From the IMG/VR virus record IMGVR_UViG_3300032238_001617, positions 1 through 23,471 of that record: DNA of 23,471 bases; one strand, written 5' to 3'. The DNA is from a virus. The number at the start of each line of letters is the position of its first letter. The first letter of the stretch is position 1. Below, in pieces: positions 4,910 to 19,769 of the stretch. Below the pieces are notes generated by a model. It ran no database searches, was not told the DNA's origin, and worked only from the letters and a program-made list of their open reading frames with translations. The position numbers and the translations under genes are program-made.

Positions 4910-6876
<1,967 letters not shown>

Positions 6877-8072: not shown

Positions 8073-9785
8073 TTAATTTTCAGTAATAATTCCTGCTAGG
8101 AATTTTATTCTATCAAATTGTTCAGAAATTAAGGTGTTGTTCATATTTGTACTTTCATTAGTGGGTATTATTTTAATTAAGTTAATATCCAAATCAGGAA
8201 GCCAAACATTGTATTTGTCTTTAAATTTATTTTTTATATCAATAAGCTCTGAGTCTTTGTCATCATATACATTTATTTTTCTTATTGTTGGAAATTGTTC
8301 AAAAGTTTGTTCTATTCTTTGACTTTTAGATTGATCTCCTATTTTAAATAAATAACCGTCAAATTTTATATTATTGATATCTAATATTTTTTTTACTTCT
8401 TCACTTAATTTATATGTTCTGTTTGTTAACAAAAAATTTTTAGCTTTGGGGTTTGAAGTAGCTTTTTTTAAATAATTTACAATTTTTGGATTTAATGGAA
8501 TATTGTATTCTGGAAGTATACTTTCTGGACGACCTACCCATCCTTGATGAGGATATTCTTTACCTGTTATTTTTTTATATAAAATAGAACCTTCTTCTTT
8601 ACCAGGAGTTAAAAACAATGTACCATCAAAATCAAAAAAGTTTAATTCTTCAACATCTGAAGTATTTTCTGAAATGTTTTGTCTAGTTTGTTTTTTAATA
8701 TCTACATTAATTATATTTTTTGAAAAAAGATTTGATAATTGGTTTGAATCTGTTTTAACCCCTAAATCTATTGCTACTAATTTATTATCTTTGCCCATTC
8801 TTCCAAATTGTTCTTTATGGATATCTTTCCAATCAACTTTATTAGTTATAACTATTTTTTTTAATAGATTTAAAACTTCATTAAAATTTTCTTTTAAGTT
8901 ACCTTTTAACGAATTATAAAAATTCTCAGTTACTGTATTGATATCGTATTCTAAAGTATACTTACCTAAATAGGCTAATAATAACCATTTAAGAAGTAAA
9001 GGATTATAATTTTCTCCAAAAACATAAAGTTTTGTCTTAGTTTGCTTTTTTTTCCAAGCAAAAAACTTACTTATTAACTCATTTCTTTGCTTTTTATCAA
9101 AACTTGTTGGGTTAAATTCACTTTGTAATAATTCATCTGATGTTGTTCCTGTAATATTTTCTTCTTCTAGGAATTTGTCAAAAATTTTTGTTTTTAAATA
9201 AGTACTTAAGTATTTATTATTTTTTGCAAATTTTAAATAAGATTTAAAAGTATCAGTATTTTGAATATCTTTTAAGTCTGAGAATTTATTATAGGCTAAT
9301 TCTAAATCATTATATGTTTTTGAATCAGGTACAACACGTTCCATAACTACATAATAAATTTTATTTACATTTTCAATTTCTTTATTAGAATATGTAGAAC
9401 TTTTTTTTACATATTTAACATCAGCATTTAAGTTAATAGTTCCTGCTGATATTACGTTTGCTGTAAAGTCTAAATTTTTATTAATAAAAGGAATAACTTT
9501 AATAGCATTTTTTATATTAAAAAATAATTTAATAACTCTATAATCATCTAAAGAAATAACAATACCTTCTGCACCTGATGCTTCTAATTCGGGTTTGTTT
9601 TTAATTTTTAACCCAGGAAGTTTATTTGTTAGTTGTTGAAGAATATATTGAGTTAATGGATATTTAAGTTGAGTATCTTCAACTGAGTAAAAGTTTTCTA
9701 AAAGTATAGATAATTCACCAAATAATTGACTATTTTTAGTTAGTTTATTTTCTACTAAGTATTTTTTTAAGTCAAAATTATTCAT
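8073..9785 (-). CDS. Kinase-like domain fused to HAD-family phosphatase domain
   Basis: This 570-residue protein has two recognisable parts. Residues 65-345 resemble a divergent protein-kinase fold: a glycine-loop-like ASGAEGIVISL (69-79), R-V-I-K-L-F with K86, a hinge-like YYVVMERV (144-151), a catalytic-loop-like DIHKEQFG (321-328) and D340-L-G in place of DFG. Residues 380-530 form a HAD domain: FDFDGTL (384-390; D385, D387), LLTNR with T454, and VYDDKDSE (506-513; D508, D509), similar to the HAD modules of nucleic-acid repair proteins. The C-terminus EQFDRIKFLAGIITEN recalls short R-M-Q-x-L-A-G-I tails of some marine T4-like phage proteins. A dual kinase/phosphatase acting on protein or on nucleic-acid ends is possible; the substrate is unknown. 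It is the second gene after the polymerase, 14 bases downstream, and ends at a terminator. The HAD part is surer than the kinase part. Confidence 0.75.
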   Translation of the reverse strand: MNNFDLKKYLVENKLTKNSQLFGELSILLENFYSVEDTQLKYPLTQYILQQLTNKLPGLKIKNKPELEASGAEGIVISLDDYRVIKLFFNIKNAIKVIPFINKNLDFTANVISAGTINLNADVKYVKKSSTYSNKEIENVNKIYYVVMERVVPDSKTYNDLELAYNKFSDLKDIQNTDTFKSYLKFAKNNKYLSTYLKTKIFDKFLEEENITGTTSDELLQSEFNPTSFDKKQRNELISKFFAWKKKQTKTKLYVFGENYNPLLLKWLLLAYLGKYTLEYDINTVTENFYNSLKGNLKENFNEVLNLLKKIVITNKVDWKDIHKEQFGRMGKDNKLVAIDLGVKTDSNQLSNLFSKNIINVDIKKQTRQNISENTSDVEELNFFDFDGTLFLTPGKEEGSILYKKITGKEYPHQGWVGRPESILPEYNIPLNPKIVNYLKKATSNPKAKNFLLTNRTYKLSEEVKKILDINNIKFDGYLFKIGDQSKSQRIEQTFEQFPTIRKINVYDDKDSELIDIKNKFKDKYNVWLPDLDINLIKIIPTNESTNMNNTLISEQFDRIKFLAGIITEN

Positions 9786-12409: not shown

Positions 12410-12436
12410 AAAAAAAGGCTTGGAAAACCAAGCCTT
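12410..12436 (-). terminator. Rho-independent terminator after the deazaguanine/nucleotide unit
   Basis: On the minus strand the nine-base-pair stem AAGGCTTGG/CCAAGCCTT with a TTTT loop is followed by seven T. It lies 21 bases after the stop of the dUTPase-like gene and ends the long unit that begins at 19705. Confidence 0.92.
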
Positions 12437-12457: not shown

Positions 12458-12961
12458 TTATTTATACGAAGTACTTAAACCTTGCCATTGGCTTCCTTCA
12501 CCACCATATTGCTCTCCTACTTCATCTACTCTCCAGAATGCAATTTGTCCGATTCTAGCATTCTTTTCAATAATAATTGTACCATTTACAATCATTGTTG
12601 TATTCATTCTATCACAGTAGAATCCTGGATCCCACCAAGGTGATTCAATAATAGTTCCTGTACGATATAAAGAAGATCGGTGAGTGATTTTAGCAGCACA
12701 GTCAGCAGGTACTTTAATACCTTCGTTGAATGTAACTGAATAAACACCTCTTTCTAGTCTCCAACAGTCTCTATTATCAATCTTTTGAGTAGGCAATTCC
12801 ATATAGCCTTCTGGTTTGATGATAGTTTGGTCTGTGTAAACTATTGAGCCAATCATTACCATTTCAATTTTGGCAACTGATAAGTCAATTCCGATTTGGG
12901 CACGTTTTGAATAATCTGATTCAATAATGTGATTTGAGATTTGTTTTGAATTTAATAGCAT
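12458..12961 (-). CDS. dUTPase / dCTP deaminase family protein
   Basis: This 167-residue protein carries the trimeric dUTPase/Dcd fold landmarks: GIDLSV (24-29), a conserved RSSLYRTG (95-102), WWDPGF (109-114) and an ARIGQIAF (135-142) strand. RSS binds the nucleotide phosphates in this family. The dCTP deaminase catalytic glutamate, expected in a T/V-L-E-L segment after the D-P-G-F motif, is not present: the segment reads MNTTMIV. Deamination is therefore doubtful and dUTP hydrolysis is favoured, though the classical dUTPase C-terminal glycine motif is only loosely matched (GGEGSQWQG). It begins one base after the FolE stop and is the last gene before a strong terminator. Its likely role is to keep uracil out of phage DNA or to supply dUMP. 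The superfamily is sure, the exact reaction is not. Confidence 0.82.
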   Translation of the reverse strand: MLLNSKQISNHIIESDYSKRAQIGIDLSVAKIEMVMIGSIVYTDQTIIKPEGYMELPTQKIDNRDCWRLERGVYSVTFNEGIKVPADCAAKITHRSSLYRTGTIIESPWWDPGFYCDRMNTTMIVNGTIIIEKNARIGQIAFWRVDEVGEQYGGEGSQWQGLSTSYK

Positions 12962-12962
12962 A

Positions 12963-13655
12963 TTATATTTGATGTCCTCCGTTGTTAATTTTTAAACTAT
13001 CGAAAAATTCTTTACGTGCTTGGTTTTTATTATCCATAAACACACCTGATGCTTTAGTAGTAACCATTGATGCACCTTGGTGTTTAACACCTCTACAAGA
13101 AACACAATTGTGAGTAGCAACTACTGTTACAATAACACCAATATTTCCTTCACAAATTTTTTCTACTGCTTGATGAATTGCTGATGTTAATTGTTCTTGA
13201 ATAGCACCTCTACGACCAAAGTGTTCTACAATACGATTTAATTTAGATAAACCAATTACAGAACCATTTTCACCTACAATGTAACCAATATGAACTACAC
13301 CTCCGATTGTTTGGTGGTGATGAGAACACATTGAAGTAAGTGGAATGTTACGTTCAATAACAATGCCATCGTATCCGTCTGAAGGGAATGAGGTGATATC
13401 GCTCATAGGCTCATATCTGCCTTTCCATAAATCAAACACATAAGCTTTAGCTACACGACGAGGAGTGTCTGAACTGTTAGGATCATTTCTCCAATCACAT
13501 CCTAAAGCATCTAAAAATTTACCATATGCTTCAGCGGCTTCATCTACCATAGCCCATTTTTCTTTTTCAGTGAATGGGAAACCAGGAGCAATACCGTTAG
13601 CATAACCTTGTTTTACACACTCTAAATCGAGTGTAAATGTTTTATTCTTTTCCAT
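12963..13655 (-). CDS. folE: GTP cyclohydrolase I
   Basis: This 230-residue enzyme is of normal length for the family. It would convert GTP to 7,8-dihydroneopterin triphosphate, the first step toward folate and 7-deazaguanines. Motifs: DTPRRVAKAY (63-72), a zinc and active-site segment SMCSHHHQTIGG (108-119) with C110, H112 and H113, GLSKLNRIVEHFGRR (135-149), QEQLT (153-157) and ATHNCVSCRGV (180-190), where H182 and C184 align with the catalytic His and third zinc ligand. The usual C-E-H-H-L-L-P-F reads C-S-H-H-H-Q-T-I, and an extra cysteine (C187) replaces a methionine. Because QueD, QueE and QueC are upstream in the same unit and no folate gene is present, its product most likely feeds preQ0 synthesis. 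A 49-base gap separates it from the preceding gene. Confidence 0.95.
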   Translation of the reverse strand: MEKNKTFTLDLECVKQGYANGIAPGFPFTEKEKWAMVDEAAEAYGKFLDALGCDWRNDPNSSDTPRRVAKAYVFDLWKGRYEPMSDITSFPSDGYDGIVIERNIPLTSMCSHHHQTIGGVVHIGYIVGENGSVIGLSKLNRIVEHFGRRGAIQEQLTSAIHQAVEKICEGNIGVIVTVVATHNCVSCRGVKHQGASMVTTKASGVFMDNKNQARKEFFDSLKINNGGHQI

Positions 13656-13704
13656 AACTATATTTTATAATGTAATAATATTTTTTGTTTTGACCAAACT
13701 AAAG

Positions 13705-14205
13705 TTAATCTTCAGCTGGTACTCCTATAACGTGATTTAGATTTCTTTTTAATCCATTGGTAGCATCTAAACCATAACCTACTAACCAGTGTTCATTAGT
13801 TAATTCAAAGCCATAAATTAAATCTTTATAGTGTGAATAATCTTTTTTGAACAATGTTACTGGAGTAATTGATTTAGGGTTATAGGTTTTTAAACTAGCT
13901 ATTAAAGCTTTTATTGTTGTTCCTGAATCGTAAATGTCATCTATAAGATAGACATCTTTTCCTGTAATGTTTGTTTCAACATTTTTAGTAATTGATACAC
14001 TACCTTGTTGTGTTCCTGTGTATGATTTAGCGCGTATAAAGTCTATTTCGCATTCGCCTAATTGTTTCACTAAATCCGTAAAAAACATGAAAGCACCGTT
14101 TAATACACAAACATATACAGGGGGTTGTTCATGTTCGATCTTATTAATTCGATCTGCTATTTCTTTTACTTTGTCTTGTATTTCTCTTTCTGTAAATAAT
14201 ATCAT
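13705..14205 (-). CDS. hpt: Hypoxanthine (purine) phosphoribosyltransferase
   Basis: This 166-residue protein matches bacterial Hpt in length and motif order: VCVLNGAFMFFTDL (32-45), the flexible active-site loop KSYTGTQQGS (60-69), the PRPP-binding DVYLIDDIYDSGTT (84-97) with D89 and D90, and a purine-contacting HWLVGYGLDATNGLKRNL (139-156). It would join hypoxanthine or guanine to PRPP, giving IMP or GMP. In this unit it could recycle guanine released when a transglycosylase swaps bases in DNA, and also feed GTP to FolE; that link is inference. It overlaps the upstream thioredoxin-fold gene by one base. A specificity for another purine analogue cannot be excluded. Confidence 0.9.
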   Translation of the reverse strand: MILFTEREIQDKVKEIADRINKIEHEQPPVYVCVLNGAFMFFTDLVKQLGECEIDFIRAKSYTGTQQGSVSITKNVETNITGKDVYLIDDIYDSGTTIKALIASLKTYNPKSITPVTLFKKDYSHYKDLIYGFELTNEHWLVGYGLDATNGLKRNLNHVIGVPAED

Positions 14206-14450
14206 TATAAAACTATTTTTCTTAAAACTTCTTTAACTTCTTTAGGGCCTTCAAACAAATGTTTTCCGTTTTTATCTTCAATCATAAGTGTAGGTACCCA
14301 ATTAACTTGGACTTCTTCTAATAATACGTTATCACTATAAGTGTCTACCATTTCAATGTTGAGAGGGGTTTTGAATTCATTAATCAAAGGAGCTAATTCT
14401 CTACATTGGTGGCATCCTTTATGATAAAAATAAGTAATTTTTGGTGTCAT
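14205..14450 (-). CDS. Small thioredoxin/glutaredoxin-fold protein (CHQC)
   Basis: This encodes 81 residues. It begins with a strand (PKITYFYH) and a redox motif G-C13-H-Q-C16-R, followed by a helix, then a WVPTLMIED segment with cis-proline P53 and a GKHLFEG turn. This is the minimal thioredoxin fold. Together with the WCGPC thioredoxin at 16753-16998 it would give the phage two redox partners, a likely electron source for the ribonucleotide reductase. The CxxC residues between the cysteines (H-Q) are unlike standard glutaredoxin (P-Y) or thioredoxin (G-P). An ATATTTATA element precedes it, but the gap to the upstream gene is only 12 bases, so it is probably co-transcribed. Confidence 0.82.
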   Translation of the reverse strand: MTPKITYFYHKGCHQCRELAPLINEFKTPLNIEMVDTYSDNVLLEEVQVNWVPTLMIEDKNGKHLFEGPKEVKEVLRKIVL

Positions 14451-14462
14451 ATCTTATAAATA

Positions 14463-14834
14463 TTAAACTTTATTCCATTTGTTATTTGAATCTAATACAA
14501 AACTTCCAACACATTCATATTTCCATTCACTAGGTTTTATTAATGATAGAAAAATATTTTCATCTCGGCCAATATATAAATGATAAGTGCATCCTATAAT
14601 AGGTTCAAAATTAAATTTAGCATTATAAACTAATTCATTCCATTTATATTCTTCTACTAATTTTTTATATTCTTCTTTTAACTCATTAAACCTGGTTTGT
14701 AATTGATGATTTACTTTGTTAGCATTAGCTAATTTCCAACTCGTAGTATCTTCAATTTTAATAGCAGGAGCACCTATATTACTACCATAAGGTAATAATC
14801 CTGGATTTTCTGCTACATTATCTGGTTTTTTCAT
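14463..14834 (-). CDS. DUF2452 family protein
   Basis: This encodes 123 residues. The N-terminal half reads NPGLLPYGSNIGAPAIK, then WKLANANKVNHQLQTRF, which I recognise as the conserved core of DUF2452, a family of unknown function found mainly in Bacteroidota. A long helix (FNELKEEYKKLVEEYKWNEL) follows, and the C-terminal part is beta-rich with TYHLYIG and a SLIKPSEW segment. No catalytic residues are known. The 3' end lies 12 bases before the thioredoxin-fold gene, and the ATG overlaps the thioesterase stop as ATGA (14831-14834). Presence in a phage points to a Bacteroidota host or gene exchange with it. Confidence 0.72.
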   Translation of the reverse strand: MKKPDNVAENPGLLPYGSNIGAPAIKIEDTTSWKLANANKVNHQLQTRFNELKEEYKKLVEEYKWNELVYNAKFNFEPIIGCTYHLYIGRDENIFLSLIKPSEWKYECVGSFVLDSNNKWNKV

Positions 14835-15232
14835 AATTTTGAGTCGGGTATTCTATATTTGTCTTTTACTGTTTGAGAAATAGAAATTGGAACTCCTTCA
14901 TCATCTACCCTAACAAACGTCATGTTTGTTTCTAATAATGTAACTTCATCTCCTCTAAACACATTGTATGCTCTTGCTTCAACTCTAAAAGTAGCTGATG
15001 TGTTACCCATTCTTAAAACCTCAGCATAAATTTTTACTAAATTTCTTTCTTTAGCTGGTTTTTTAAAAACGCATTTGTCTATTGCTATAGTAATCATGTT
15101 TTGACTTCTGCAAGTTTCCATGGCGTAGGCTGCGACCGCGGCATCTAACCAGCTAAGCAATTTGCCGCCGAATAGATTGCCGTGGAAGCCTAAATCTAAT
15201 TTTTTAACAGGATGTGTTGATAGTAAATCCAT
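14831..15232 (-). CDS. Hotdog-fold acyl-CoA thioesterase
   Basis: This 133-residue protein has the hotdog signature of YciA/acyl-CoA hydrolases: HGNLFGGKLLSWLD (17-30) with D30 as the likely catalytic acid, an ITIAIDKCVFKKPA strand pair, and MGNTSATFRVEARAY leading to a TFVRVDDEG segment. The family hydrolyses acyl-CoA thioesters in the cytoplasm. Its purpose in a phage is unclear; altering host lipid or CoA pools during infection is one possibility, and use on another thioester is another. Bases 15121-15190, coding for the LLSWLD and alanine-rich helix, contain 41 G or C of 70 and use GCC/GCG codons unlike the rest of the window, hinting at recent acquisition of at least this part. It starts seven bases after the stop of a 51-residue ORF. 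Confidence 0.85.
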   Translation of the reverse strand: MDLLSTHPVKKLDLGFHGNLFGGKLLSWLDAAVAAYAMETCRSQNMITIAIDKCVFKKPAKERNLVKIYAEVLRMGNTSATFRVEARAYNVFRGDEVTLLETNMTFVRVDDEGVPISISQTVKDKYRIPDSKL

Positions 15233-15239
15233 TTGTTAA

Positions 15240-15395
15240 TTAAAAATAATAATCTTTTTGATAGGGAAGGGTTGAATATTTATTTTTCCAATAGAATCTT
15301 GAATAATTTCTATAAAACTTAATCCCACATACTGTGTAACAAAAGAATTCTATAATTCTATATCTACTAACTTTTAAATATTCTAACAATCTCAT
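15240..15395 (-). CDS. Small basic ORF (51 aa) between queE and the thioesterase
   Basis: The 165-base interval between QueE and the thioesterase holds an open frame of 51 codons from ATG 15395 to TAA 15240. The product is basic and aromatic (starts MRLLEYLKVSRYRIIEFFCY, ends in a tyrosine-rich tail) with no clear membrane helix. Upstream is an AGAGGTG stretch about eight bases before the ATG, inside the end of QueE, one of the few Shine-Dalgarno-like sites here, and the spacing to both neighbours (2 and 7 bases) is typical of the unit. No family recognised. It could be non-coding, but the fit between neighbours favours a gene. Confidence 0.5.
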   Translation of the reverse strand: MRLLEYLKVSRYRIIEFFCYTVCGIKFYRNYSRFYWKNKYSTLPYQKDYYF

Positions 15396-15397
15396 AA

Positions 15398-16207
15398 TTA
15401 AACACCTCTCTTAGTATCAAAAGCAATGATGTGTTCTCTACCTGTAAAGTTATATCCGTGTTCGGTACAAAAATCAATTACCATAGGATAAACTCTAACT
15501 AATTCTTCTCTATTATCACCTGGAGGCATAATCCAAGTTTTATGTTTAGGAATACCTAACTCGGTTCTAAATGCTTCAATTTCTTTCCAAATTTCAGGCA
15601 TTTCAACAGGATTACAAACTGGTTTGAAATGATAATCTTTATGGTAATGGATCATCTTTTTAATAGCTTCAGTATGTAATCTGTGTTTGTTGTGTTGGTC
15701 AATCATCTTTTGATCGGTTTTAACACCTTTTGGAGTTAATACACCTAGTTTAGGGACTGAATTGCTAAATTTAGGTGATAAAGAGATCAAACCTAAAGGA
15801 TATTCTGTTTCAATATAGTGACTTCCTTCAGTTTCCATTGTAATCACAATACCTCTTTCATTAGCAAAAATAGATAATTCATTTACCAAATCAGGATGCA
15901 TTGTTGGTGAACCACCAGTTAACATCATTTCTTTAATGTCCGGTCTTTTATTGTACATTTCAACAATGTCATTAAAACTAAATCCACCTTTTTCAGGATG
16001 AATGCTTGTATACCAACTATCACACCAACCACCTTCACCAAACCAACATCTGTGAGTACAACCTGTTGTACGAACAGCTACTGTTGGAAAACCTGCTCTA
16101 GAGCCTTCGCTCTGTACACAATAATATAACTCTACTATTGGTAATTTTTTATCGTAATCTATAATTCTTCCTGGTTTCATATTATTTGTTAATTTTTCTG
16201 TCGTCAT
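15398..16207 (-). CDS. queE: 7-carboxy-7-deazaguanine synthase (radical SAM)
   Basis: This 269-residue radical SAM enzyme would convert CPH4 to 7-carboxy-7-deazaguanine, the third step of the preQ0 pathway. The N-terminal IVELYYCVQSEGSRAGFPTV (24-43) matches the QueE substrate-binding start. The iron-sulfur cysteines are C50, C54 and C62 in GCTHRCWFGEGGWCDSWY, so the spacing is CX3CX7C rather than CX3CX2C. The SAM-binding motif T-G-G-E-P reads TGGSP (97-101). Further support comes from VITMETEGSHY (125-135) and a C-terminal KTWIMPPG. It overlaps the end of QueD by 26 bases from the ATG at 16207. An ATG at 16180, two bases after the QueD stop, is an alternative that leaves all motifs intact. 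Confidence 0.92.
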   Translation of the reverse strand: MTTEKLTNNMKPGRIIDYDKKLPIVELYYCVQSEGSRAGFPTVAVRTTGCTHRCWFGEGGWCDSWYTSIHPEKGGFSFNDIVEMYNKRPDIKEMMLTGGSPTMHPDLVNELSIFANERGIVITMETEGSHYIETEYPLGLISLSPKFSNSVPKLGVLTPKGVKTDQKMIDQHNKHRLHTEAIKKMIHYHKDYHFKPVCNPVEMPEIWKEIEAFRTELGIPKHKTWIMPPGDNREELVRVYPMVIDFCTEHGYNFTGREHIIAFDTKRGV

Positions 16208-16760
16208 ACTCTAATACACCTTTTGCTTTTGCATATTCTGCTATTTCTTTTCCTCTTTCAATGTTAAAAGCTTTCCATTCACTAACTGAAATACTTTCAG
16301 CTAGGCATTCAGTCCAACAATTTGGAGTTTCATAAATTGTTACTTTATGTATTTTTAAACCAGTTGGAGCATCTTTGTAAAGTGTGTTTGATAATACTTC
16401 CATAGCTAAAAATACTTCTTTAGCAATGTTTTCTACTGATGGATTACAATATCTACCAGATCCGTTTAAGCTCATCAACCACAATTTAGTACCATAGTCT
16501 TTAGTTGTCTTAATAAGTAATTCGTCTTTAGGATTTAAAATCATTCCATGATCTAAAATATCGTCAATCCATTGACAAAATACTCTTTTAATTTCCTTGA
16601 AGTCAATCGCATAACCGATTTCTTCCATGTTTTCGAAACTGAATGTTAATTCATAAAGATAAGTATGTCCATGAATGTTATAACATTTCATGAATTCATT
16701 CATTACTCTATGTCCAGAGTCAAAATTACCTTTTCTGCTTATATATTGTGTCTTAGCCAT
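16182..16760 (-). CDS. queD: 6-carboxy-tetrahydropterin synthase
   Basis: This 192-residue protein of the PTPS/QueD family would turn dihydroneopterin triphosphate from FolE into 6-carboxy-tetrahydropterin. The zinc ligands are H17 (FDSGHRV), H30 and H32 (CYNIHGHTY), with C26 as the catalytic cysteine, followed by AIDFKEIK (51-58) and a D70-H71 pair in ILDHGMILN. A late IYETPNCWTEC carries the conserved glutamate that holds the pterin. It is longer than the usual 120-140 residues, through an insertion after LNPKDE and a C-terminal helix. The ATG lies eight bases inside the end of the thioredoxin gene, and QueE overlaps its 3' end. Confidence 0.94.
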   Translation of the reverse strand: MAKTQYISRKGNFDSGHRVMNEFMKCYNIHGHTYLYELTFSFENMEEIGYAIDFKEIKRVFCQWIDDILDHGMILNPKDELLIKTTKDYGTKLWLMSLNGSGRYCNPSVENIAKEVFLAMEVLSNTLYKDAPTGLKIHKVTIYETPNCWTECLAESISVSEWKAFNIERGKEIAEYAKAKGVLEYDDRKINK

Positions 16761-16998
16761 TGATAAATTGCATTATTTGTTCATAACTCATAATACCTAC
16801 AAATCTACGAATTTCTTCGCCTTTTTCGGCAAGAACTACTGTAGGAATATTTATTACCTTAGCTGCTTTAGTTCTATCGGTTTCATATTCAATGTTGATT
16901 TTTTCAACAGGTATTACTTCTGATACTTTGTCCATAATAGGACCTAATGTTTTGCATGGTCCACACCATTCTGCTGTAAAATAAAATATTTGCTTCAT
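16753..16998 (-). CDS. Thioredoxin
   Basis: This 81-residue minimal thioredoxin has the classical active site W-C12-G-P-C15 in FTAEWCGPCKTLGP, a following helix, and cis-proline P52 in INIPTVVLAEKGEEIRRF. It lacks the first strand-helix of cellular thioredoxin (about 105 residues), as many phage thioredoxins do. It would reduce disulfides, most plausibly the C-terminal cysteine pair of the class II ribonucleotide reductase at 20908-22764. It lies between a membrane protein gene (three bases upstream) and queD (eight-base overlap), so it is expressed with the preQ0 genes. Confidence 0.93.
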   Translation of the reverse strand: MKQIFYFTAEWCGPCKTLGPIMDKVSEVIPVEKINIEYETDRTKAAKVINIPTVVLAEKGEEIRRFVGIMSYEQIMQFING

Positions 16999-17001
16999 AA
17001 T

Positions 17002-17286
17002 TTATACTAATTCCTCTAATATACCTACTACTTCTGAACCTACCAAGATAAAACATGCTACTGTTAAATCAAAAGGTAAAGCTAAATAACCTAAAATTCT
17101 AATACCTGATTTAATAAAGCTAATTAATTGGTGTTTTTTAGGATCAGGGTGTTTCATTGTTTTAAATTCAACATCAGGTGAATCGTTTGTTGGAGTTGGC
17201 TCTAACGTTGTTAATTGTACTTCTGTTTCTTGAATAGATACCTTTGGTGATTTTGGTTTTCTATTTGTTGTTTTTTTAGTTGTCAT
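17002..17286 (-). CDS. Small membrane protein with polar N-terminus
   Basis: This encodes 94 residues and is unrecognised. The first 50 residues are polar, with many K, T and P (TTKKTTNRKPKSPKVS), probably disordered. Residues 55-90 (LISFIKSGIRILGYLALPFD, then LTVACFILVGSEVVGILEEL) form one or two membrane helices. It starts one base after the preceding stop and ends three bases before the thioredoxin start. Position within the deazaguanine unit is the only functional hint. A role at the host membrane is likely but unspecified. Confidence 0.65.
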   Translation of the reverse strand: MTTKKTTNRKPKSPKVSIQETEVQLTTLEPTPTNDSPDVEFKTMKHPDPKKHQLISFIKSGIRILGYLALPFDLTVACFILVGSEVVGILEELV

Positions 17287-17287
17287 A

Positions 17288-17506
17288 TTAAAATTGTTCT
17301 TTGTTTATTAATTCGTATTCGTTTGGATTACTATCGTAAATATAGGTGGTATTTGCTAATTCTAAAAACTTGGCTTCATCCCAATTAGCTGACCAATAAG
17401 GATAACCAGATCTTAAACCAGCAAATACTTCACCATTTTTATTTACAATAGCATACATTGGTGTATTAAATTGTTGTTTTTTTCTATAGTTCGAACGCGT
17501 GCTCAT
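17288..17506 (-). CDS. Hypothetical protein overlapping queC end
   Basis: This encodes 72 residues and is unrecognised. A basic N-terminus (MSTRSNYRKKQQ) is followed by strands (PMYAIVNKNGEVFAGLRSG) and an aromatic turn (YPYWSANWDEAKFLELANTT). The pattern Y-A-I-V-N-x-N-G-E-V-F-x-G resembles small phage proteins with a single beta-sheet, but no named domain can be given. The ATG lies 23 bases inside the end of queC, so translation is probably coupled. Confidence 0.65.
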   Translation of the reverse strand: MSTRSNYRKKQQFNTPMYAIVNKNGEVFAGLRSGYPYWSANWDEAKFLELANTTYIYDSNPNEYELINKEQF

Positions 17507-18377
17507 GTTCTTTCAGAACTAAATGTACGTACTCTTTTACGGTTTCCCAACTTACAGGACCGAATTCGTCAGCATAATTTACAGGATCTGGGCGATCTAG
17601 TTTCATAAATGCTTCTACACGTTCAACTGATGATGCTGATTTGTAATCGCTAAACCATTCTTCACTAGCTACACCATTGTCGTGGTATACTTTATGTAAA
17701 ATTGGTTTATATGATGTGTTAGTACGTTTATATACTTCATCAAAATCAAGTTCTAATGTATTGCAACAAATTTCACCATCAACTAAAATACCGTACTTAT
17801 CGTCTTCAAGATAAGGAGTATAATAAGTTACTTTTTCAGCACCCCAGTTACCTGCTTTAAATGCTTCATAATCAATATCTCTAAATTCTTGTCTGCAATC
17901 AGGATAAATAGCATGATCACCAGCATGAATACCCATTGCAATAACACATTCTGTGTTTTTAGATTCTGCAATTGATAAAGCAACAGCTTGAATAATTGAA
18001 CTAAAGATTTTGTTACGATTAGGAACAACAGTTGCTTTCATATTTTCTTCAGCATAGTGACCTTCAGGAACCTCTGCTCCACCTGTTACTAAAGCCGAAT
18101 TAAGTAATTGAGATAGACCATCTAATTTAATTATTTGGTAATTAATTTTAGGAAAGTGATGTAAAATAACTTCTGATCTTTCGGATTTATATTTAACTTC
18201 ATCAGCTTTATCATTCAAATAATTAACTAAAGATGATGCTCTTTCAAGTTCAACTGAATGTTTTTGTCCATAATCAAAGGATAGTGCTGTAACTTCATAG
18301 CCATTGGCGAGTAGATGAAGCAATAATGTGGAGCTATCCATACCTCCACTTAACGATAATACTGCTTGTTTATTCAT
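17484..18377 (-). CDS. queC: 7-cyano-7-deazaguanine (preQ0) synthase
   Basis: This 297-residue protein is of the PP-loop ATPase family and would turn 7-carboxy-7-deazaguanine into preQ0 with ATP and ammonia. Motifs: SLSGGMDSST (8-17), SFDYGQKHSVE (33-43), VVPNRNK (117-123) and GIHAGDHAIYPDCR (149-162). It is longer than bacterial QueC (about 220-230), partly by an insertion around residues 55-80 and an extended C-terminus. The zinc site normally formed by four C-terminal cysteines is absent: TNTSYKP (219-225) and SDYKSASSVERVEAF (243-257) align with the T-x-S-C-Y and C-G-x-C-x-S-C-x-x-R-x-x-A-F segments, but no cysteine remains. No GAT or amidotransferase domain is fused. It lies three bases after the DpdA-like gene. 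Confidence 0.92.
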   Translation of the reverse strand: MNKQAVLSLSGGMDSSTLLLHLLANGYEVTALSFDYGQKHSVELERASSLVNYLNDKADEVKYKSERSEVILHHFPKINYQIIKLDGLSQLLNSALVTGGAEVPEGHYAEENMKATVVPNRNKIFSSIIQAVALSIAESKNTECVIAMGIHAGDHAIYPDCRQEFRDIDYEAFKAGNWGAEKVTYYTPYLEDDKYGILVDGEICCNTLELDFDEVYKRTNTSYKPILHKVYHDNGVASEEWFSDYKSASSVERVEAFMKLDRPDPVNYADEFGPVSWETVKEYVHLVLKEHEHAFEL

Positions 18378-18380
18378 ATT

Positions 18381-19157
18381 CTATTTTAATAAATTTCTAA
18401 ATGTTTTTAAGTTCCAATCTAATAAATCATAATCTAATTCTGTGGTATAAAAATGATTATTCATGTTTGCTTTTGGTTTTTCATTTAAACCATTTGGACC
18501 ATATTTAAGACCATCTAAAGTTGCCATGATTGGATTAGATGTATCAATTGTTTCAATAAAACCAGCATCTTTATACCAGCTAAATTCTTGTGGTACCTGA
18601 CAACCTAATAAATGTACTCTGTCATTTGGTTGAATTATACCCATATTATACATTCTACTTACTACCTCAATTCTACCTAATGCTTTTGCTAAATCTTGAT
18701 TGGGATGTGATGAATGATCTAAGTAATAATTAGCACCATAAGATAAAGCAATCTTTTTATAACCTAAATCTTTATATGTTTGATAACAAACTACAGCATC
18801 TAAAAAGTTTTTTGCTTGAACTACAGCTACTTTAGTAACTTCTTTAGGTAATTTAATTTGAGCCCATTCTCTAGCATTAACAATAGATTGAGTTGTATCT
18901 TCCCACACATCTGGGATGATAAATTCATTTGGTTTTAATTCGTTAATCCAGTATAATAAACGAGATTCATCATAAGCATGACCTAATTCATGTAATGAAT
19001 TATCCATTATTATATACACACCTTGTTTTTTAACTTTATAAAAAAAGTCTTTGTAATCTTCGTCTTGATCTAACAAATGAGGAAGACAATATTGATAATC
19101 ATTGAATTTTAAACTGTCTTCTAATAAACAGATAGGAACTTCGTGTGATAATTTCAT
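18381..19157 (-). CDS. DpdA/TGT-like 7-deazaguanine transglycosylase
   Basis: This 258-residue protein reads as a compact version of the tRNA-guanine transglycosylase TIM barrel. Segments in TGT order are: IIMDNSLHELG (49-59; D52, like D-S-G-G-F-Q), FIIPDVWED (79-87), VAVVQAKN (110-117, Q114 like the V-Q-G-G glutamine), KIALSYGA (135-142), VHLLGCQVPQEF (181-192) and FIETIDTSNP (200-209; D205 in the position of the nucleophile). The TGT C-terminal CxCxxC zinc site and tRNA-binding part are missing. DpdA proteins exchange guanine in DNA for preQ0 or related bases. Location directly before queC, in a unit with queD, queE and folE, supports DNA modification; action on tRNA is the alternative. A TATATT element lies six bases before the ATG. 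Confidence 0.8.
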   Translation of the reverse strand: MKLSHEVPICLLEDSLKFNDYQYCLPHLLDQDEDYKDFFYKVKKQGVYIIMDNSLHELGHAYDESRLLYWINELKPNEFIIPDVWEDTTQSIVNAREWAQIKLPKEVTKVAVVQAKNFLDAVVCYQTYKDLGYKKIALSYGANYYLDHSSHPNQDLAKALGRIEVVSRMYNMGIIQPNDRVHLLGCQVPQEFSWYKDAGFIETIDTSNPIMATLDGLKYGPNGLNEKPKANMNNHFYTTELDYDLLDWNLKTFRNLLK

Positions 19158-19180: not shown

Positions 19181-19705
19181 TTAATTTTCCAACTTAAATT
19201 TAGGAACAGGTTTTGGTTTTGGAATGGTTCTTGTTGATTTATAATCTTCAATAAATTCAACAATAGTGCCTTCGAAATTGTGAAATCTTTCTTTCAAATC
19301 TTCTTCATTACCACCAAATGCTTTCCTCATATCTTTGAATAAAGAAGCCAAACGATTCAATTCATCTCTTTCAGCATCTTTGATTAAACGTTCTCTACGA
19401 GCATAATACAATTTTGAAATCTGTCTTTCATTCCAGTCATAATTCTCACTAGCTCCTGTATAATTGGCTTTGAATTTTTTGATTTCTTGTTCTTCAAACC
19501 AATGCTCATATTGTACTTGTTTCCAGTACGGGGAGTAATCATAATCACCGTTTTTTGCTTTTTCCATTACGGGGCAATTATTAGGTAATGTTTTGTGTTC
19601 TTGGTAACGTCTCCACCAAAAAAACTTGTTGTATGTTTTGTTTGGTTTAGGTGGTATTGGACTATACGTTTCTTTAAAATGTTTGAAATCTTTTAATATT
19701 CCCAT
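19181..19705 (-). CDS. Hypothetical protein, first gene of the deazaguanine unit
   Basis: This encodes 174 residues and is unrecognised. It is rich in aromatic and charged residues. A short N-terminal proline stretch (YSPIPPKPNKTYNKFFWWRR) is followed by WKQVQYEHWFEEQEIKKF and long helices (RRERLIKDAERDELNRLASL, FKDMRKAFGGNEEDLKERF), ending in a proline-lysine tail (IPKPKPVPKFKLEN). No membrane segment or cysteine pair is present. It follows a terminator and a promoter-like TATATTCACG and comes 23 bases before the DpdA-like gene, so it is the leading gene of that transcript. It could be an accessory factor for the modification system or simply a neighbour. Confidence 0.65.
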   Translation of the reverse strand: MGILKDFKHFKETYSPIPPKPNKTYNKFFWWRRYQEHKTLPNNCPVMEKAKNGDYDYSPYWKQVQYEHWFEEQEIKKFKANYTGASENYDWNERQISKLYYARRERLIKDAERDELNRLASLFKDMRKAFGGNEEDLKERFHNFEGTIVEFIEDYKSTRTIPKPKPVPKFKLEN

Positions 19706-19719: not shown

Positions 19720-19740
19720 AAAAAGGCCTTACAAAAGGCC
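19720..19740 (-). terminator. Rho-independent terminator after the membrane protein gene
   Basis: On the minus strand the six-base-pair stem GGCCTT/AAGGCC with loop TTGT is followed by five T. It lies 29 bases after the stop of the coiled-coil membrane protein gene and just before the next candidate promoter. Confidence 0.85.
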
Positions 19741-19769
19741 CGTTTGTTCGACAAGGTAGGGGTTATTTT

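What the first reader, a model, noticed from the sequence alone, without database searches (positions are those of the whole stretch)
12963..19157. Complete preQ0 pathway plus DpdA-like transglycosylase in one transcription unit
FolE, QueD, QueE and QueC cover every step from GTP to preQ0, and a TGT-like barrel with retained catalytic aspartates sits directly before queC. Terminators at 19720-19740 and 12410-12436 frame them with only small gaps. Established: DpdA-family enzymes in phages and bacteria insert 7-deazaguanines into DNA, often protecting against restriction. Inference: this phage makes a 7-deazaguanine-modified genome. No DpdB/C-type or amidotransferase partner is in view, so the base may be preQ0 itself.
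Basis: partly seen in the sequence, partly recalled or inferred. Interest (0 to 1): 0.8.

Follow-up and report, generated by a model that had tools for sequence, protein, structure and literature searches.

The report
Phage guanine-replacement cassette with guanine recycling
This virus carries the genes to make the altered letter preQ0 and to swap it for guanine in its DNA, and beside them a purine-salvage enzyme that, across many phages, nearly always sits with this pathway and probably recycles the guanine thrown out by the swap.

Summary
FolE, QueD, QueE and QueC are where stated. The 258-aa protein before queC is a compact guanine transglycosylase: its AlphaFold model (pLDDT 93) matches TGT and the DNA preQ0 insertase DpdA (Z about 17), with D52, D83, HLLG and D205 conserved. 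It is homologous to gp56 of Campylobacter phage CP220, whose dG is wholly replaced by dADG. Forty environmental contigs carry relatives, most with the same cassette; hosts are probably Flavobacteriales.

A hypoxanthine/guanine phosphoribosyltransferase (PRTase) lies between QueE and FolE. A PRTase of HGPRT or Gpt type is present in 20 of 21 relatives with enough sequence. Starting from PRTases alone, 150 of 169 viral loci have 7-deazaguanine genes within 8 kb, against 6 of 71 thymidylate-synthase controls. In many Vibrio, Pseudomonas and Stenotrophomonas phages a Gpt-type domain is fused to FolE. I infer that the PRTase turns guanine expelled by DpdA back into GTP for FolE.

QueC of this clade has lost all four zinc cysteines but keeps its catalytic motifs, so the product is probably, not certainly, preQ0. 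No chemistry was tested. Kind: new variant of a known system.

The parts
18381..19157 (-). compact DpdA-type DNA-guanine transglycosylase, 258 aa
   Evidence: AF2 pLDDT 93.3; VIA Z 16.8-17.0 to TGT and DpdA 7ui4; D52, D83, H182-L-G185, D205 invariant in 17 sequences
17484..18377 (-). QueC, zinc-less long form, 297 aa
   Evidence: PF06508 9e-35; fold Z 18.3 to B. subtilis QueC 3bl5; four zinc Cys absent
16182..16760 (-). QueD (6-carboxytetrahydropterin synthase), canonical type
   Evidence: PF01242 6e-28; SGH and HGH motifs
15398..16207 (-). [quoted passage not shown]
   Evidence: phrog_2076 9e-46; TIGR03365 5e-13
12963..13655 (-). FolE (GTP cyclohydrolase I)
   Evidence: PF01227 3e-42; CSHH and HxC zinc residues
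13705..14205 (-). HGPRT-type purine phosphoribosyltransferase, proposed guanine recycler
   Evidence: TIGR01203 1.5e-37; PRPP motif LIDDIYDSGTT and VGYGLD; conserved slot; linkage test
12458..12961 (-). dCTP deaminase/dUTPase-like, last gene of the unit
   Evidence: PF22769 2e-11
14831..15232 (-). 4HBT hotdog thioesterase, role unknown, strongly conserved
   Evidence: PF03061 2e-17; dN/dS 0.07-0.19; also in immuto at 60%
16753..16998 (-). thioredoxin, probably serves the class II RNR
   Evidence: PF00085 9e-15
14205..14450 (-). second thioredoxin-like protein
   Evidence: PF00085 8e-07
19181..19705 (-). unknown 174-aa protein, first gene of the unit, present upstream of DpdA in most relatives
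   Evidence: no family; order conserved
19724..19741 (-). terminator-like hairpin upstream of the unit
12415..12436 (-). terminator-like hairpin downstream of the unit

Best explanation
A DNA hypermodification cassette of a large tailed phage, probably of Flavobacteriales. FolE, QueD, QueE and QueC turn GTP into a 7-deazaguanine, most likely preQ0 (shown: genes and motifs; inferred: the product). The compact DpdA-type transglycosylase removes guanine from phage DNA through D205 and inserts the deazaguanine (shown: fold and residues; inferred: DNA as substrate). Each exchange frees one guanine. The HGPRT joins that guanine to PRPP, giving GMP, which becomes GTP and re-enters at FolE. This closes the purine budget and removes the product that would drive the exchange backwards, which would favour high or complete replacement (inferred from linkage, repeated enzyme replacement and FolE fusion). 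The modified DNA would resist host restriction (established for other members, PMC6884629).
For: Gene identities; fold and catalytic residues of DpdA; homology to CP220 gp56, profile E 2e-60, and CP220 DNA has 100% of dG as dADG (PMC8306585); conserved operon in relatives under purifying selection. For recycling: PRTase in 20 of 21 loci with room beyond QueE; 150 of 169 PRTase-anchored loci carry que/dpdA genes against 6 of 71 controls; PRTase is swapped between HGPRT and Gpt types while the function stays; Gpt-type domain fused to FolE beside DpdA in VpKK5, NP1, MMDA13, Bhz54; XGPRT between QueE and QueD in BUCT-ZZ01.
Against: No chemistry was tested. Sequence-only profile comparison of the barrel to TGT and DpdA1 is not significant. 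QueC lacks the zinc site held to be required. HGPRT scores below the TIGR01203 equivalog cut-off (129 against 150 bits), so its base preference is not certain. BSTP12 and phiSM have the pathway without a detected PRTase, so recycling is not universal. Hosts have their own guanine salvage.
Confidence: 0.7

Rival explanations
1. Nucleotide route: the PRTase loads the finished 7-deazaguanine base onto PRPP, RNR and kinases turn it into a dNTP, and the phage polymerase builds it in; DpdA is secondary. A modified-dGTP route was proposed for Campylobacter phages (cited in PMC6884629).
For: Would explain 100% replacement in CP220; class II RNR, thioredoxins and polymerase flank the cassette; MazG-type genes sit next to the PRTase in L031 and L044 and next to FolE in phiST.
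Against: Every PRTase-bearing phage inspected in this family also has a DpdA-type enzyme, CP220 included. In named phages the fusion is to FolE, the GTP consumer, not to QueC, the base maker.
Confidence: 0.12
2. The zinc-less QueC stops at the amide, so the DNA base is 7-amido-7-deazaguanine (or the carboxy form), not preQ0.
For: All four zinc cysteines lost in 31 of 32 complete QueC frames of environmental relatives and in immuto; CP220 DNA carries dADG (PMC8306585); QueC works through an ADG intermediate (PMC13329287).
Against: Essential residues equivalent to E. coli Y35, R99, Y131 and Y189 are kept; fold matches QueC; immuto pairs the same zinc-less QueC with QueF, which needs preQ0; CP220 makes dADG with a zinc-type QueC.
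Confidence: 0.25
3. The PRTase is ordinary purine salvage from degraded host DNA and RNA, kept next to the pathway only because nucleotide genes cluster.
For: The cassette lies among nucleotide genes (RNR, DCD, thioredoxin); HGPRT salvages hypoxanthine as well as guanine.
Against: Thymidylate synthase, another nucleotide gene from the same clade, shows the link in 6 of 71 loci against 150 of 169; fusion to FolE.
Confidence: 0.2
4. The cassette serves tRNA queuosine: the TGT-like enzyme acts on tRNA.
For: Same fold as tRNA TGT.
Against: No PF01702 match; none of the CXCXXC zinc-subdomain cysteines of tRNA TGT in its 258 aa; no QueF in the related contigs; its nearest characterised relatives are phages with modified DNA.
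Confidence: 0.04

Closest known systems
Flavobacterium phage vB_FspM_immuto_2-6A cassette (NC_055915)
   Same: QueC 65%, FolE 64%, QueE 63%, 4HBT 60%, DpdA 33% identical; PRTase between QueE and FolE; zinc-less QueC
   Different: Adds QueF and a formyltransferase beside dpdA, so probably a preQ1-derived base; Gpt-type PRTase; QueC far from the rest; family A polymerase
Campylobacter phage CP220/CPt10 (dADG, 100% of dG; PMC8306585)
   Same: DpdA homologue gp56, 33% identity, profile E 2e-60; stand-alone Gpt-type PRTase
   Different: Genes scattered over the genome, gp56 annotated as hypothetical; zinc-type QueC
Escherichia phage CAjan and Mycobacterium phage Rosebush (dPreQ0 at 32% and 28% of dG; PMC6884629)
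   Same: Minimal gene set FolE, QueD, QueE, QueC, DpdA
   Different: Their relatives Greed and TA17A have zinc-type QueC; no PRTase found for these groups; other DpdA subfamily
Vibrio phage VpKK5, Pseudomonas phage NP1, Sphingomonas phage MMDA13
   Same: QueE, QueC (Gat-QueC in NP1), QueD, FolE and DpdA in one cluster with a guanine-type PRTase
   Different: PRTase is a Gpt-type domain fused to FolE; longer DpdA1-type transglycosylase

Membership tests
TGT/DpdA transglycosylase superfamily | TIM-barrel fold of TGT | tested here: met
   VIA Z 16.6-17.0 over 225-229 residues to TGT and DpdA 7ui4; all 50 listed entries are TGT/DpdA; Foldseek agrees
TGT/DpdA transglycosylase superfamily | Catalytic aspartates and base-binding residues | tested here: met
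   D52, D83, H182-L-G185 and D205 invariant in 17 sequences; register HLLGxxxPxE/IDTSNP to YLMGVGKPED/FDCVMPT of E. coli TGT, though that alignment is not significant on its own
tRNA TGT (PF01702) | Pfam TGT profile | tested here: not met
   no match in the window protein or in 19 related records, while all 14 control genomes ring
DpdA3 subfamily (recalled from Cui et al. 2023) | Published subfamily definition | not testable with these tools
   paper not held; homology to CP220 gp56 is strong
preQ0 biosynthesis pathway | FolE, QueD, QueE, QueC all present with motifs | tested here: met
canonical QueC (PMC13329287) | C(x)8CxxCxxC zinc motif | tested here: not met
   no cysteine in the aligned region; replaced by TSY...SDYKSASSVER
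canonical QueC (PMC13329287) | SGGxDS, YxQxHxxE, VPxRN, YPDC and the essential Tyr189 | tested here: met
   S10-S15, Y36, VPNRN at 118, YPDC at 158, Y223
HGPRT (TIGR01203) | Equivalog score cut-off 150 bits | tested here: inconclusive
   128.9 bits, E 1.5e-37; PRPP and GYGLD motifs present
phage 7-deazaguanine DNA modification | Modified nucleoside in phage DNA | not testable with these tools
   needs LC-MS of phage DNA

The most novel reading that the evidence does not exclude
Guanine-type phosphoribosyltransferases (HGPRT, Gpt, Gpt-FolE fusions) are an unrecognised standard component of phage 7-deazaguanine DNA modification. They recycle the guanine expelled by DpdA into GTP for FolE and, by draining the leaving group, let replacement run towards completion.
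Probability: 0.5. Interest if true: 0.75.

Novelty: new variant of a known kind. Interest (0 to 1): 0.6.

Why it matters
Swapping bases in finished DNA throws away one guanine for every letter changed. For a 160-kb genome at 30% GC, full replacement and a burst of 50, that is about 2.4 million guanines per cell, or about 4 mM in 1 fL (genome size and burst are assumptions). I found no paper that asks how phages pay for or dispose of this. A built-in recycling enzyme would answer it, could explain why some phages reach 100% replacement while others stop near 30%, and would give a sequence marker for predicting which do. A QueC without its zinc site also tests the view that zinc is needed for this reaction.

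Tried and rejected
Megablast against phages: only FolE of immuto. Pfam and NCBIfam for the barrel: nothing useful. Profile against PDB sequences: only designed TIM barrels and photosystem fragments. hhalign to TGT and DpdA1: right register but not significant, so the fold match carries the claim. QueF, ArcS-type and TGT genes in the 15 related contigs: none found. Idea that the DpdA-QueC gap in relatives holds base-tailoring enzymes: it holds an HNH-like gene and small unknowns. Idea that a zinc-less QueC explains dADG: dropped as the main reading because CP220 has a zinc-type QueC and immuto, with the zinc-less type, has QueF. Idea that 4HBT is tied to the zinc-less QueC: not so, not found in G012, G014, G015. 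PF00156 missed the CP220 PRTase; tblastn with the phiST protein found it. The two key papers (Cui 2023, Crippen 2019) are not held, so priority for the PRTase idea could not be fully checked; a search for phage + GTP cyclohydrolase + phosphoribosyltransferase + DpdA found no paper.
Full report
What is there. The window is a complete 23,471-base viral record, about 30% GC. The named genes are present, all on the - strand, and identified by independent libraries. The unit framed by two terminator-like hairpins runs from 19705 down to 12458: an unknown 174-aa protein, DpdA, QueC, two small unknowns, thioredoxin, QueD, QueE, a 165-nt gap, a 4HBT thioesterase, a DUF2452 protein, a second thioredoxin, HGPRT, FolE, a dCTP-deaminase-like protein. 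Upstream lie an unknown 377-aa protein, a class II ribonucleotide reductase and a DnaB-type fragment; downstream a DNA polymerase, further replication genes and GroEL/GroES.

The transglycosylase. It has no Pfam match. The nearest named relative is the annotated DpdA of Flavobacterium phage immuto (33%), then unannotated proteins of CP220-type Campylobacter phages (about 33%), then Bacillus phage BSTP12 (26%). AlphaFold2 on 22 sequences gave pLDDT 93. VIA-align puts archaeal TGT (Z 17.0), bacterial TGT (16.8) and the DNA preQ0 insertase DpdA 7ui4 (16.8) on top, and all 50 listed entries are TGT or DpdA; Foldseek agrees. Among viral models a clear distant match is Cellulophaga phage phiST (TM 0.85, 18% identity). 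Seventeen sequences from Campylobacter, Bacillus, Cellulophaga and Flavobacterium phages and environmental contigs share D52, N53, D83, H182, L184, G185 and D205. From what I know of TGT these fit the general base, base-recognition residue, substrate glycine and nucleophile; sequence-only hhalign gives this register for the last two motifs in E. coli TGT but without significance.

Relatives. One scan of IMG/VR gave 40 loci at 46-86% identity. The order DnaB, RNR, p19770, p19181, DpdA, QueC, p17288, p17002, thioredoxin, QueD, QueE, 4HBT, thioredoxin, HGPRT, FolE, DCD, polB is conserved in the nearer ones. Matches in GTDB contigs include Flavobacteriales, Winogradskyella and Flavobacteriaceae bins, but also bins of other taxa, so the host is only probable. 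Coding constraint against six relatives is strong: dN/dS 0.13-0.22 for DpdA, 0.14-0.20 for HGPRT, 0.07-0.27 for FolE.

Exchangeable parts. QueD is of a different PTPS type in the relatives. L044 uses FolE2 (PF02649) in place of FolE. The PRTase also changes lineage: HGPRT at roughly 61-68% or at roughly 40-45% identity to the window's, or a Gpt-type enzyme. The activity is kept while the gene is exchanged. Of 21 loci with at least 3 kb beyond QueE, 20 have a PRTase; the exception is BSTP12.

Is the PRTase link real? I tested it in reverse. Four PRTase proteins were used to pull viral loci without reference to que or dpdA genes. In 150 of 169 loci of at least 9 kb a QueC, QueD, QueE or DpdA gene lay in the locus (up to 8 kb each side); for a thymidylate synthase control from the same phage clade it was 6 of 71 (odds ratio 86, Fisher p 5e-34). 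Loci are not independent, so the PRTases were clustered: 59 of 67 clusters at 70% identity and 19 of 22 at 50% have the link in at least one member. The queries themselves came from phages with FolE or the pathway nearby, so near relatives would share the context; the spread over 22 distant clusters argues that this is not the whole story. In named phages a Gpt-type domain is fused to the N-terminus of FolE in VpKK5, NP1, MMDA13, Bhz54 and, judged by hits inside FolE genes, about 33 records, with DpdA next door where inspected. Stand-alone copies occur in immuto, phiST and CP220-type phages and between QueE and QueD in Synechococcus phage BUCT-ZZ01.

Mechanism. A transglycosylase releases one guanine per base inserted, and one GTP is spent per preQ0 (established chemistry of the families). 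A guanine PRTase feeding FolE closes this loop, and fusion to FolE, the GTP consumer, fits that better than loading of the finished base. CP220, with 100% replacement (PMC8306585), has a PRTase; no PRTase hit was seen for the groups measured at 32% or less in PMC6884629. This rests on very few lineages and is a prediction, not a result.

Which base. The minimal gene set gives dPreQ0 in CAjan and Rosebush (PMC6884629). No QueF or ArcS-type gene was found in 15 related contigs, many of them fragments. QueC lacks its zinc site in 31 of 32 complete frames of environmental relatives; two other phage groups (RHEph04; Pan1 and R26L) lack it with different replacements. The residues shown essential by mutation in E. 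coli QueC are kept (PMC13329287), the fold is QueC (Z 18.3 to 3bl5), and immuto pairs the same QueC with QueF. I give preQ0 about 0.7.

Membership and novelty. It belongs to the TGT/DpdA superfamily by fold and residues and is not a PF01702 tRNA TGT. I recall a DpdA3 subfamily (Cui et al. 2023, doi 10.1093/nar/gkad657) that allows complete guanine replacement; this is very likely its place, but the paper was not available. The cassette is a new variant of a known kind: known pathway, compact DpdA, zinc-less QueC and a built-in guanine PRTase. The PRTase link, with its proposed recycling role, is the part I could not find described.

Noticed in passing
17484-18377 and relatives: QueC with all four zinc cysteines replaced (TSY...SDYKSASSVER) across the clade and in immuto; other zinc losses in RHEph04 and in Pan1/R26L phages.
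   Followed up: yes
16182-16760: The window's QueD is the canonical PTPS type, while close relatives carry a different, poorly alignable QueD (FRQW...HGY) in the same slot: an in-place gene swap.
   Followed up: partly
L044:14704-15744: A related phage uses FolE2 (GTP cyclohydrolase IB, PF02649) instead of FolE, next to a Gpt-type PRTase.
   Followed up: partly
14831-15232: 4HBT hotdog thioesterase inside the cassette is among its most conserved proteins (78-90% identity, dN/dS 0.07-0.19) and occurs in immuto; role unknown.
   Followed up: partly
15398-16207: QueE of this clade has cysteine spacing CX3CX7C (GCTHRCWFGEGGWCD) instead of CX3CX2C at the iron-sulfur site.
   Followed up: no
L001:15948-17924 (immuto): Formyltransferase and QueF genes just after dpdA: probably a formylated preQ1 base in that phage.
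   Followed up: no
L031:14901-15452, L044:15784-16554: PRA-PH/MazG-type nucleotide pyrophosphohydrolase next to the PRTase; phiST has a MazG gene next to FolE. Possibly dGTP removal.
   Followed up: no
4910-6876: Phage-encoded GroEL and GroES pair, close relatives common in IMG/VR.
   Followed up: no
8073-9785: 570-aa protein with a HAD_SAK_1 domain (RNA-repair phosphatase-like) near its C-terminus.
   Followed up: no
L017:11402-12061, L005:12464-12949: HNH-like genes inserted around queC in relatives, plus a conserved small protein (SLYDYLGKPAGKELG) between DpdA and QueC that the window lacks there.
   Followed up: no
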